Shown in pieces: positions 22,969 through 26,727 of a stretch of DNA of 64,000 nt. Numbering within the stretch: position 1 is the first letter of the stretch; each line of letters begins with the position of its first letter. The stretch lies in contig CAMCWC010000001.1 of the NCBI GenBank assembly GCA_945882415.1, positions 124,001 to 188,000 of the forward strand, given 5' to 3'. The position numbers and the translations under genes were made by a program. Source of the stretch: Chthonomonas calidirosea. GTDB lineage: Bacteria; Armatimonadota; Fimbriimonadia; Fimbriimonadales; Fimbriimonadaceae. Below the pieces are notes generated by a model, which ran no database searches, was not told where the DNA came from, and saw nothing but the letters and a program-made list of their open reading frames with translations.

Positions 22969-25002
22969 TTAGAACGCAAACACCACCTTTACGCTGACTC
23001 GGGACACAAATTCTTGGGTATTTGGGTCGCCGACGATTAAGTAGTACTCCGTTCCGCTCCCCCCACCGTTTCGGAAGGCAAGATAGCCGTTTCGGCGACC
23101 ATTGCTATCGACTAATCGACCGGTGACTGACATCGTTCGCGAGAACTCGTATCCGAGGGTGGCGATGGTTTGGCGATCCGTATCGCCCACGGTAATCACC
23201 GAATGAGAAAGCCCGAGGTCCATGCGCTTGAACAAGCGATAGCTCGCTTGAAGACTGGTGAAGTTGCTTGAAACTCCGCCGCGTTGCCCAGCCTCGGTGT
23301 AGATCGAGAACTTTCGGAATCGGTTGCTTTGATTCGGCGAAATGAAGACTCCGAAGACTCGATCCAACTTGCCAAAGAACCTTGTGTTCGTGTGGTTCAC
23401 GGCAAGACGCACGTCGTTGCGGGTTGTCATTCCAGCCGAGGCTTCAAACCCTTTCTCCTGTTCTTGGCCATCGTACTGTTCGAAGTACGTTCCGAAGATG
23501 TTCGCATTCACGTCCCGGACGCCGCCTTTTCGGAACTCACGGAAGTACTCGGTGTAAGACGAAAACCCTTTTCGGTCGGTCCAAGGAATAAAACCAAGCG
23601 GCGGAGCAAAGTCCGGTTTGATCCAACGATAGGTCACGTCGGAGAACCAGTTCGGGACCTGATAGTTCATCGAAACGTTGCCGGCGGAGCTGTAGGCTCG
23701 CGACTGATCCTTCTCGACGGCTGCATTTCCGGACCACGCAAACGAGCCGCGCTGCGTGTAGTAGCTGCCGCCCAGGGCCTCGTGGCGATATCCGCCGGGG
23801 CGGTTCAGCGTTGTGCCGAACAGCGACATATCGCCGCGCTGACCGGGGTCCTGGTGGATTCGGAACACGCCGACCGACTGCTTCCCGGTGTCATTGGCCA
23901 CGAGCGCGCCGTAATCCAACCGGTTCGTAATGCGGCCAAAACTCTTTGCGCCCCAATCCATCTCCTGGATGCGGTTTGAATAGAACAGGTTGCCGTAACC
24001 AAAGAATCCGCCAGTACGGAAGAAGTCCGAACCCTCCGTGAAGAACGGCCGGACGTCGTTGAGAAATCGTTCCGTGCGGGTGAAGTCGATGCCGGCGATT
24101 TGGGCTTCGATGTTGCGGAAGTCTGGGTTTACGGAAAGCAAACCGGTGACGGTCGAGGTCGGTTGGTATCGGACGTCCAACCCGGCTCGCACTCCGGACG
24201 AGGTGCGATCGTACTCTGGCGCAATGTAGCCGAGGTACTGAAACGGCTTCAGCGCGGCCGGTGGAGGCGAAACACCTAACCAACGGGCCGAACGGTCGCT
24301 GAACTCTTGCAAGCCGATATTTGGCCAGAAGGACTTTGCCTGGCGCTTGCCTTCAACGCGAGCAAAGATCACGTCCATGTTAAGGTCCTTGCCGCTCGGA
24401 TAGTTCAAGACCTTCCAGGGGATGCGCATTTCGACTGACCAGCCGTCCTCAAGTCTCTTGGTGCCAGAAGTCCATTCGCCTCGCCACTCGCGCTTCGAAG
24501 ATCTTCCTCCAGCGATGTCATCGCTTTGAGTGTTTAGCGGATTTACAAAGAAGTCGCTCGTGCCGGAACCGCTCCGGGTTCCGAAAGGATTGATCGTAAA
24601 TCCAACGAAGTCTTCGCCTTCAAACTCTGCCCCGATCCGAATTTCTCGAGCGATGATATCGCTCGGCTCCAGCGCGTAACACCGAAACGCCACAAAGAGC
24701 GCCTCTTGGTTGTAGGTGAGGAAAACCTTCGTCCGGTTTCGAGCGCCTTGACCAGTAACCGGATCAAAAAGGCCGTCCTGCACAAATGCGCCTTGCCACT
24801 CGGTCTCTTCAATCTCGCCGTCAATTTTGATGATTTGGGTGGTTTGTGCAGTTTTGATCTCAGGAACGGATGAAGGGGCTTGCCCAAAGCTGATCGAAGC
24901 GAGCAGCATAAAGCAAATAGGTATTAAATTGCGGCATCGTCGGAATCTGAAGAAAGGCAAGGCACGCAGTAGTACCACCATACGATTCCAAAAGGTGCCC
25001 AA
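22969..25002 (-). CDS. DUF5916 outer-membrane protein with CBM9-like domain
   Basis: Up to 677 residues. N-terminal signal peptide (ICFMLLASISFGQA); the exact start is open (ATG 25002 or ATG 24981). Residues of about 45-215 form a carbohydrate-binding family 9-like beta-sandwich (IDGEIEETEWQGA...DGWSVEMRIPW). From about 230 onward lies DUF5916, with alternating aromatic beta-strands and the final residues VKVVFAF ending in Phe, as in barrels assembled by BamA. It is therefore probably an outer-membrane protein that binds glycans or related ligands. It precedes uvrB by 12 bp with no functional link apparent. The start diverges from the metH half-gene 39 bp away. Confidence 0.85.
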   Translation of the reverse strand: MGTFWNRMVVLLRALPFFRFRRCRNLIPICFMLLASISFGQAPSSVPEIKTAQTTQIIKIDGEIEETEWQGAFVQDGLFDPVTGQGARNRTKVFLTYNQEALFVAFRCYALEPSDIIAREIRIGAEFEGEDFVGFTINPFGTRSGSGTSDFFVNPLNTQSDDIAGGRSSKREWRGEWTSGTKRLEDGWSVEMRIPWKVLNYPSGKDLNMDVIFARVEGKRQAKSFWPNIGLQEFSDRSARWLGVSPPPAALKPFQYLGYIAPEYDRTSSGVRAGLDVRYQPTSTVTGLLSVNPDFRNIEAQIAGIDFTRTERFLNDVRPFFTEGSDFFRTGGFFGYGNLFYSNRIQEMDWGAKSFGRITNRLDYGALVANDTGKQSVGVFRIHQDPGQRGDMSLFGTTLNRPGGYRHEALGGSYYTQRGSFAWSGNAAVEKDQSRAYSSAGNVSMNYQVPNWFSDVTYRWIKPDFAPPLGFIPWTDRKGFSSYTEYFREFRKGGVRDVNANIFGTYFEQYDGQEQEKGFEASAGMTTRNDVRLAVNHTNTRFFGKLDRVFGVFISPNQSNRFRKFSIYTEAGQRGGVSSNFTSLQASYRLFKRMDLGLSHSVITVGDTDRQTIATLGYEFSRTMSVTGRLVDSNGRRNGYLAFRNGGGSGTEYYLIVGDPNTQEFVSRVSVKVVFAF

Positions 25003-25041
25003 ATGGGACCGAAAGGTTAGGAACCGGTATTCTCGTTAGCA

Positions 25042-26727
25042 GTGCCAGGTTCGGGAAGCGATCAGCAGCGAGTTTGTACATATGATCCCCTCATCGAGCT
25101 GATGTCTCGATTCGAGAACGTCCGGGCCAGCAGCGATGCTACCGACGCCTTTGCTGGACTCTCCATCGAAGACCAGCTGAAGAAGCACATCATCAACGGC
25201 GTCAAGAAAGGGCTCGATTCCCGCCTCCAGACCGCGCTCGAGACCTATACGCCGCTCGCGATCATCAACGACATTTTGCTGGACGGGATGAAAACCGTTG
25301 GAGAACTCTTCGGTTCGGGCAAGATGCAGTTGCCGTTTGTCTTGCAGAGCGCGGAAGTCATGAAGACGGCGGTTCGATTCCTTGAGCCCCTCATGGAGCG
25401 AGTCGAGGGCAGCGAAAAGGGCTCGATCCTGTTGGCGACGGTGGCGGGTGACGTGCATGACATCGGCAAGAACCTCGTCGATATCATCCTCAGCAACAAC
25501 GGTTACCGCGTCGTGAACATCGGCATCAAACAGCCGATTAACACCATTCTCGATAAGTATCGCGAGAGCGGCTGTCAGGTCATCGGACTCAGCGGCTTGC
25601 TCGTAAAGTCGACCCTCATCATGAAGGAGAACCTGCTGGAGATGAACAGCCGGAATCTCTCGCGCGTACCGGTGATTCTCGGCGGAGCGGCGCTGACGCG
25701 CTCATATGTAGAACAAGATCTCCGAAACCTATACAAAGGCAAAGTCTTTTACGCGCAGGATGCCTTTGAGGGATTGCGGGTCATGGAAGAGATCGCCGCG
25801 ACGGCGCATGAATCAGCGCCAGAGGTTGAAACCGAGGACGTTCCTGTCGAGCGAGTTCGAAGTCACCGGCTCGACGTGCTTGACCCGTCTCTTTACGTTT
25901 TTGACGGCATCCGATCGGATGTCGTGCCTCTAGCGGATTCACCCGCGCTGCCGTTTTACGGAGCGAAGCGGCACACGAACTTCGACATTTTCGAGCTTTA
26001 TAAATACATCAACCCGATTGCGCTTTTCCGGGGACAGTGGCAGTTCAAGCGACCGGAAGGAATGGGCAACGTGGAGTTCACCGCCTGGCTGGATGCCCAA
26101 GCTCGACCGGTGTTCGAGCGGCTCCAGCGCGAACTTGCCCGGGTGCTTGAACCCAAAGTGGTTTGGGGCTATTTCCCCTGCAACTCAGAAGGCAACGACC
26201 TCATCATCTACGAAGAGGACGAAAGAACCGAGCGAATGCGGTTCTCCTTCCCGCGTCAACGGGACCACCGAAACCTCTGCCTCAGCGACTTCTTCCGCCC
26301 GGTCGGCGAGGCGCCAGATACGGTTGGTTTCCACGTCGTGACAGTGGGCAAAAAGATTTCCGAGCATGAGCAAAAGCTGTTTGCCGACGGCAACTATCAG
26401 GACTATCTCTTTGTCCACGGCATGGGCGTCGAGACTGCGGAGGCGCTGGCCGAGTACTGGCATCGCCAGATCCGCCTAGAAATGGGGATTGGCGACCAGG
26501 AGCCGGACGATTTTCGGCTGATGTTTAGCGCGAAATACCATGGCTCGCGCTACTCGTTCGGATATCCGGCGTGTCCAAACTTGGAGGATCAATCCAAGTT
26601 GTTCGAACTGCTCAAACCAGAGCAGATTGGTTTGGAACTGAGCGAGGAGTTCATGCTGGTGCCCGAGCAAAGCACCAGTGCGATCATCGTTCATCACCCC
26701 GAGGCGAAGTACTTTAATATCCGCTAA
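25042..26727 (+). CDS. metH: methionine synthase C-terminal half (cobalamin and reactivation domains)
   Basis: 561 residues from GTG 25042. Order: cobalamin cap domain (about 45-120, ending in FLEPLME), B12-binding domain with GDVHDIGKN (His139 is the lower Co ligand) and the distal GLSGLLVKST and GGAALTR loops, then the AdoMet-binding reactivation domain (about 290-561) with FGYPACP and SEEFMLVPE. The homocysteine and methyltetrahydrofolate domains that make up the first 650 residues of standard MetH are missing, and an in-frame stop (TAG 25018-25020) closes the frame upstream. So this is a genuine short gene, presumably working with a separate N-terminal half encoded elsewhere. TATTCT ends 8 nt before the GTG, with no Shine-Dalgarno sequence. 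Confidence 0.9.
   Translation: MPGSGSDQQRVCTYDPLIELMSRFENVRASSDATDAFAGLSIEDQLKKHIINGVKKGLDSRLQTALETYTPLAIINDILLDGMKTVGELFGSGKMQLPFVLQSAEVMKTAVRFLEPLMERVEGSEKGSILLATVAGDVHDIGKNLVDIILSNNGYRVVNIGIKQPINTILDKYRESGCQVIGLSGLLVKSTLIMKENLLEMNSRNLSRVPVILGGAALTRSYVEQDLRNLYKGKVFYAQDAFEGLRVMEEIAATAHESAPEVETEDVPVERVRSHRLDVLDPSLYVFDGIRSDVVPLADSPALPFYGAKRHTNFDIFELYKYINPIALFRGQWQFKRPEGMGNVEFTAWLDAQARPVFERLQRELARVLEPKVVWGYFPCNSEGNDLIIYEEDERTERMRFSFPRQRDHRNLCLSDFFRPVGEAPDTVGFHVVTVGKKISEHEQKLFADGNYQDYLFVHGMGVETAEALAEYWHRQIRLEMGIGDQEPDDFRLMFSAKYHGSRYSFGYPACPNLEDQSKLFELLKPEQIGLELSEEFMLVPEQSTSAIIVHHPEAKYFNIR

What the first reader, a model, noticed from the sequence alone, without database searches (positions are those of the whole stretch)
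25042..26727. Methionine synthase as a C-terminal half gene
Only the B12 and reactivation domains are present, with an in-frame stop upstream and a promoter-like element 8 nt before GTG. The homocysteine and folate domains must be a separate gene. Splitting exactly between catalytic and cobalamin modules is uncommon and tells how the modules can act in trans.
Basis: partly seen in the sequence, partly recalled or inferred. Interest (0 to 1): 0.5.

Follow-up and report, generated by a model that had tools for sequence, protein, structure and literature searches.

The report
Methionine synthase in two separate halves
This bacterium makes its vitamin B12-dependent methionine synthase as two separate proteins, cut in the flexible joint between the substrate-binding half and the B12-carrying half, and an unrelated bacterial family appears to have independently made the same cut.

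Summary
ORF 25042-26727 (+, GTG, 561 aa) carries the Cap, cobalamin-binding and activation domains of MetH and nothing upstream. The missing half is a 652-aa gene elsewhere in the genome (G000:C5) with the homocysteine and pterin domains. No full-length metH and no MetE were found. The cut lies in linker II (Fol|Cap), between FD(E/R)R and YDPL of fused homologues, with no loss or duplication.

It is not an assembly error. The same cut occurs throughout one family (Fimbriimonadaceae, Armatimonadota): 64 of 70 genomes at least 90% complete hold both halves. All split C-halves form one clade next to fused MetH of the same order. In 8 genomes metH-N lies divergent from a metF-metH-C pair, a functional link. 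A second, unrelated lineage ('Chlorobiota') has the same cut; one common origin is rejected on concatenated halves (not on the C-half alone, p 0.07).

Best explanation: a two-subunit MetH in which catalysis is between proteins while B12 reactivation stays within the C-half. Other MetH splits are in print (Phaeobacter, Burkholderia, Bacteroides); none that I saw cuts here. New variant of a known kind. Activity in trans is inferred, not shown.

The parts
25042..26727 (+). metH-C: separate gene for the Cap-Cob-Act half of cobalamin-dependent methionine synthase, 561 aa, GTG start
   Evidence: TIGR02082 positions 610-1182 of 1182; PDB 8ssc 598-1149
25018..25020 (+). in-frame TAG stop upstream of the GTG
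   Evidence: read in the sequence
25028..25033 (+). TATTCT, -10-like hexamer 8 nt before GTG (leaderless-type start)
   Evidence: same in G088 (L167) and G074 (L175)
25042..25167 (+). N-terminal tail, remnant of linker II; YDPL at 25081-25092 aligns with YDPL/CDPL of fused MetH
   Evidence: alignment
25168..25386 (+). Cap domain (B12-binding_2, PF02607)
   Evidence: residues 43-115
25423..25773 (+). cobalamin-binding domain (PF02310)
   Evidence: residues 128-244
25450..25467 (+). DVHDIG, the DxHxxG cobalamin-ligating motif (motif name recalled)
   Evidence: sequence; identical in 8ssc
26086..26721 (+). activation (SAM, reactivation) domain (PF02965)
   Evidence: residues 349-560
26548..26565 (+). 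RYSFGY, the RxxxGY SAM motif of the activation domain (motif name recalled)
   Evidence: sequence; identical in 8ssc
22969..25002 (-). divergent neighbour (DUF5916, 677 aa); not part of the methionine system, bounds the upstream side
   Evidence: same neighbour in G088 and G081

Best explanation
The window gene is metH-C, one of two subunits of a cobalamin-dependent methionine synthase whose ancestral single chain was cut in linker II. The other subunit, metH-N, is the 652-aa Hcy+Fol protein at G000:C5. Shown by sequence: gene content, clean cut, single origin in the family, purifying selection, near-constant co-occurrence, and linkage with metF in relatives. Inferred: the C-half's cobalamin domain docks on the Fol barrel of the N-half to take the methyl of methyl-THF, then on the Hcy barrel to make methionine, so both catalytic steps are between proteins; when cob(I)alamin oxidises, reactivation with SAM stays within the C-half because Cap, Cob and Act are still one chain. 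The cut is tolerable because linker II is a mobile tether while linker I locks Hcy and Fol together.
For: Domains split without overlap: TIGR02082 1-614 in the N-half, 610-1182 in the C-half. The DxHxxG and RxxxGY motifs of the C-half and the GMNC and GGCCG cysteines of the N-half match solved MetH. Only PF02965 in the genome; no PF01717 MetE. Same cut in the family: the 38 of 39 N-halves whose 3' end lies on the contig end within about 10 residues after LVFDRR-type sequence, and C-halves begin shortly before YDPL. Hand count over: 85 family-f1 genomes, 70 at least 90% complete; both halves 64, N only 3, C only 0, neither 3 (Fisher p 3.7e-4, not corrected for kinship). Split rows one clade inside Armatimonadota, SH-aLRT 99. 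dN/dS 0.023 (C) and 0.017 (N). metF between divergent halves in 8 genomes. Linker II and IV could not be modelled (mobile) and Hcy:Fol move as a rigid body in MetH (PMC10567725, passages); [quoted passage not shown]
Against: No biochemical or expression evidence. In this genome the halves are on different contigs with unrelated neighbours. Three genomes at least 90% complete have N without a C hit (G089, G116, G157; the last cut by a contig end). No riboswitch or shared regulatory RNA found near either half.
Confidence: 0.9

Rival explanations
1. Assembly or sequencing error, or a recent frameshift, broke a normal metH.
For: Draft genome of 38 contigs.
Against: The halves lie on different contigs with separate neighbours, the cut is shared by a whole family and by genomes of 1-4 contigs, and the C-half has its own conserved start.
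Confidence: 0.01
2. The C-half is a stand-alone corrinoid protein for another methyl transfer (as MtaC/MtgC-type proteins serve methanol or glycine betaine), and the N-half works with free methylcobalamin or another partner.
For: The C-half matches pyl_corrinoid and MtgC models weakly; the genome has a second Hcy methyltransferase, HMT/MTHFR (L002).
Against: Those scores are far below cut-offs (127.7 vs 215.3 bits for pyl_corrinoid) while the MetH model covers it end to end; it keeps the activation domain; it is clustered with metF and metH-N in 8 genomes; it falls within MetH trees.
Confidence: 0.05
3. One split metH arose once and spread by horizontal transfer between Fimbriimonadaceae and the Chlorobiota family.
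For: Same cut site; with the C-half alone the AU test does not reject one clade at 0.05 (p 0.072).
Against: Concatenated halves: log-likelihood lower by 209, AU p 1.6e-162; the f1 halves sit inside fused Armatimonadota in C, N and concatenated trees; the Chlorobiota N-halves lack the two f1 inserts.
Confidence: 0.05

Closest known systems
Cobalamin-dependent methionine synthase MetH/MTR (E. coli, Thermus, human; TIGR02082)
   Same: All five domains, same order when the halves are joined, cofactor and SAM motifs conserved
   Different: Two polypeptides from unlinked genes, cut in linker II; each half alone falls below the TIGR02082 cut-off (552 and 643 vs 1010.85 bits)
Three-part MetH of Phaeobacter inhibens (PMC5764234, passages) and MtgCDE of Ruegeria (PMC12478193, passages)
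   Same: B12 module as a separate protein, working in trans; shown there by genetics
   Different: There Hcy and pterin domains are also separate and PF02965 is absent, replaced by RamA-like and DUF1638 proteins; the Ruegeria paper places those B12 domains apart from classical MetH
Two-part MetH of Burkholderia (Hcy | Fol-Cap-Cob-Act) and Bacteroides (Hcy-Fol-Cap-Cob | Act) (PMC7311316, passages)
   Same: Two-gene MetH, genuine split shared by relatives
   Different: Cut in linker I or linker IV, not linker II
Excised halves used for structures: Hcy:Fol (3BOL, 4CCZ) and Cap:Cob:Act (1K7Y, 3BUL) (PMC10567725, passages)
   Same: Essentially the same boundary as the natural cut
   Different: Laboratory fragments, not natural genes

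Membership tests
Cobalamin-dependent methionine synthase (MetH) | Hcy domain with zinc-binding cysteines | tested here: met
   In the partner gene: PF02574 E 3.8e-74; GMNC and GGCCG aligned to MetH structures; the role as zinc ligands is recalled
Cobalamin-dependent methionine synthase (MetH) | Methyl-THF (pterin) domain | tested here: met
   In the partner gene: PF00809 E 3.6e-36
Cobalamin-dependent methionine synthase (MetH) | Cap and cobalamin domain with DxHxxG | tested here: met
   DVHDIG at 25450-25467
Cobalamin-dependent methionine synthase (MetH) | SAM/activation domain with RxxxGY | tested here: met
   RYSFGY at 26548-26565
Cobalamin-dependent methionine synthase (MetH) | All five domains in one chain above the TIGR02082 cut-off | tested here: not met
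   552.1 and 642.5 bits separately, cut-off 1010.85; no fused gene found
Cobalamin-dependent methionine synthase (MetH) | Methionine synthase activity | not testable with these tools
   needs reconstitution or genetics
Phaeobacter-type three-part methionine synthase | Hcy, pterin and Cap-Cob each on its own gene, no PF02965 | tested here: not met
   Hcy and pterin are fused and PF02965 is present
Burkholderia-type split MetH | Cut between Hcy and Fol | tested here: not met
Bacteroides-type split MetH | Act domain alone on a second gene | tested here: not met
MtbC/MtgC-type corrinoid proteins | Score above the NCBIfam cut-off | tested here: not met
   pyl_corrinoid 127.7 vs 215.3; MtgC about 105 vs 310-370

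The most novel reading that the evidence does not exclude
The cut at linker II is a repeated evolutionary outcome that turns the B12 half into a diffusible, self-reactivating methylcobalamin carrier. Its ratio to the N-half is set independently, and it may serve more than one partner (for example the HMT/MTHFR protein at G000:C14). The f1-specific inserts in the N-half (21 residues in the Hcy barrel, 23 in linker I with a conserved HW...FPGFDF core) would be docking elements that replaced the tether.
Probability: 0.12. Interest if true: 0.7.

Novelty: new variant of a known kind. Interest (0 to 1): 0.42.

Why it matters
How MetH's domains trade the cobalamin between three sites is an open structural question, and the tether between the two halves is central to it. 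A natural, long-lived, apparently twice-evolved enzyme without that tether shows the linker is dispensable (if the pair is active) and gives a system where docking of the B12 half on each barrel can be measured as ordinary binding between proteins. For annotation, each half scores below the MetH cut-off, so pathway tools could wrongly call these bacteria methionine auxotrophs.

Tried and rejected
Inversion model: the head-to-head order metH-N | metF-metH-C in 8 genomes suggested the cut arose by inverting the N-half. The 7 of these in the tree lie in one subclade of 12 rows with five others (G099, G101, G127, G154, G079), while the earliest-branching split lineage (G148, L008) shows no such pair, so the arrangement may be secondary. 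Not supported.

Riboswitch control: no cobalamin or SAM riboswitch at gathering thresholds in the window, L001, L002 or in 11 related loci.

Common origin of the two split lineages: the C-half alone did not reject it (p 0.072); concatenation did. Both are reported.

Rows dropped: L220 (C-half broken in two frames) from trees; L154 (odd long branch) and L007 (identical to L218) from the second C tree; L241 (fragment of G342) from trees; one search used 15 of the 37 f1 genomes with both halves. Outgroups were 21 hand-picked fused loci. In one search the output was cut, so some C-half starts were not seen there. In one search the linker I spacing could be measured in only 14 of 21 outgroups. The co-occurrence table was counted by hand.

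Not tried: structure prediction. The N-half came through the genome search, which the tool does not list as an allowed source, so I did not send it; a model of the C-half alone would not test docking.

Literature: 8 searches found no paper describing a Fol|Cap split; the library lacks most subscription journals. I read passages only.

Full report
WHAT IS THERE. The window (G000:C1:124001-188000) holds a 561-aa GTG ORF at 25042-26727 with Cap, B12-binding and activation domains. An in-frame TAG stands at 25018-25020, and TATTCT at 25028-25033 is 8 nt before GTG. The GTG is the credible start: G088 has the same N-terminus and the same hexamer-8 nt-GTG, and C-halves of other genera start a similar short way before the shared YDPL.

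THE MISSING HALF. The genome has two PF02574 genes. One, at C5, is a 652-aa protein with Hcy (PF02574) and pterin (PF00809) domains only. The other, at C14, is a 609-aa HMT/MTHFR bifunctional protein, also the only MTHFR match in the genome. The only PF02965 match is the window gene, and MetE (PF01717) gives no match. Another Cap-domain protein is an ArsR-HTH plus B12-binding regulator. On the MetH model TIGR02082 the N-half covers 1-614 and the C-half 610-1182 of 1182.

WHERE THE CUT IS. Fused MetH of the sister family f2 reads ...LVFDERDEGCDPLIEFMARFE... or ...LVFDERDGDYDPLVDFMAQFE...; split N-halves end ...LVFDRREFA(x), and split C-halves begin M(x)..TYDPLIELMARFE (part of the C-half list was cut from that output). 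Nothing is lost or duplicated. This is linker II, Fol:Cap, which could not be modelled in the Thermus filiformis full-length structure because it is mobile, while linker I locks Hcy:Fol as a rigid body (PMC10567725, passages; species named in PMC13376404). [quoted passage not shown]

HOW WIDESPREAD. Phylum scans with PF02965 and with the N-half covered 291 genomes each. Family f1 is Fimbriimonadaceae in the wide sense, inferred from the titles of L007 and L008, whose genomes G292 and G293 give the same N-half coordinates as G148 and G149. Counting by hand, f1 has 85 genomes, 70 of them at least 90% complete: both halves in 64, N only in 3 (G089, G116 and G157, the last cut by a contig end), C only in 0, neither in 3 (G132 and G133, 1.5 Mb genomes; G123, which has an E. 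coli-type fused MetH of 1217 aa). Families f2 and f4 of the same order, and f19, have fused frames of about 1150-1190 aa, apart from a few broken by contig ends or shorter frames. In trees the split C-halves form one clade (SH-aLRT 99) next to fused f2 (42 rows; 40 rows), and the 39 split N-halves do the same. The cut happened once in this lineage. Both genes are under strong purifying selection: own vs G088 dN/dS 0.023 (C) and 0.017 (N), synonymous sites near saturation.

LINKAGE. In the window genome and most relatives the halves are unlinked. In 8 genomes (G077, G103, G105, G106, G107, G118, G125, G126) metH-N is divergent from a metF (MTHFR; Pfam-checked in two of them, found by protein comparison in all 8) followed on the same strand by metH-C. 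MTHFR makes the methyl-THF that the N-half uses, so this is independent evidence that the halves act in one pathway. It is confined to one subclade and may be secondary.

A SECOND LINEAGE. L011 ('Chlorobiota bacterium isolate J074') also begins MPLKRRCVYDPLAELI. Seven of the 8 genomes of its family carry such a C-half, six with frames of 594-655 aa and G342 in fragments. Six of the seven have a separate 635-682 aa frame with both PF02574 and PF00809; G291 shows no full N-half (1.9 Mb held). In G298 and G336 the halves are far apart on contig C1. The cut is in the same place. The group falls elsewhere in C, N and concatenated trees; holding the two split groups together costs 209 log-likelihood units on concatenated halves (AU p 1.6e-162), but with the C-half alone the test does not reject it (p 0.072). 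I conclude two independent cuts, with that reservation.

LINEAGE-SPECIFIC INSERTS. f1 N-halves carry two inserts that none of 11 fused Armatimonadota has: about 21 residues (own 37-57) in the Hcy barrel and 23 residues (336-358) in linker I. The GGCCG-to-GE(R/K)TN spacing is 74-75 in 37 of 39 f1 rows (82 and 88 in the others), 52-53 in 11 of 11 fused Armatimonadota, 53-62 in 6 Chlorobiota N-halves, 52 in 5 fused Chlorobiota-order rows, and 52-60 in 13 of 14 measurable outgroups, with one cyanobacterium (L048) at 74. The first insert is largely missing in G148. Whether they replace the tether is a guess.

MECHANISM. Inferred: methyl transfer from methyl-THF to cobalamin and from cobalamin to homocysteine occurs between the two proteins; SAM-dependent reactivation remains within the C-half. 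Shown: only sequence, phylogeny, co-occurrence and linkage.

WHAT IS KNOWN. Splits in print that I saw: three-part (Phaeobacter, PMC5764234, passages; Ruegeria, PMC12478193, passages), Hcy | rest (Burkholderia) and four domains | Act (Bacteroides) (PMC7311316, passages); PMC4364669 names a split metH in Burkholderia (one passage). GapMind reports nine split MetH cases in 35 organisms; I did not see the cut of each. The F. ginsengisoli genome paper (PMC4072686, passages) does not discuss methionine synthase in what I saw, and PMC10982107 (passages) mentions Armatimonadota and methionine synthase only apart. Searches showed no Fol|Cap split. G080 is probably F. ginsengisoli (single contig of 5,231,762 bp, vs 5.23 Mb in the abstract), a cultured strain in which this could be tested.

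VERDICT. A genuine, conserved, apparently convergent variant of a known kind of enzyme; interest moderate.

Noticed in passing
window, 45 non-overlapping ORFs of at least 120 aa: A TANNNT hexamer lies 5-11 nt before the first start codon in 16 cases where about 3.2 are expected from positions 12-35 (Poisson 3e-7), while Shine-Dalgarno-like motifs are seen in only 8 of 45. Leaderless transcripts may be common in this genome.
   Followed up: partly
L005:1216-2169 (G000:C4 about 102.9 kb): 317-aa regulator joining an ArsR-type helix-turn-helix to Cap and B12-binding domains, unlike the MerR-type CarH (that comparison recalled).
   Followed up: partly
G184:C11:10894-12756: A free-standing N-half-like protein (49% identity, 668-aa frame) in an f19 genome that also has a fused MetH.
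   Followed up: no
[quoted passage not shown]
   Followed up: no
G123:C68 and G124:C97: Genus g18 has an E. coli-type fused MetH (G123 1217-aa frame; G124 909-aa frame at 34% identity to the N-half) instead of the split pair.
   Followed up: no
G132 and G133: 1.5-Mb, 97%-complete family members with no match to the N-half or PF02965; not among the PF01717 hits, so possible methionine auxotrophs.
   Followed up: no
L220:2995-4661: In G150 the C-half is broken into two ORFs (343 and 212 aa): frameshift or decay.
   Followed up: no
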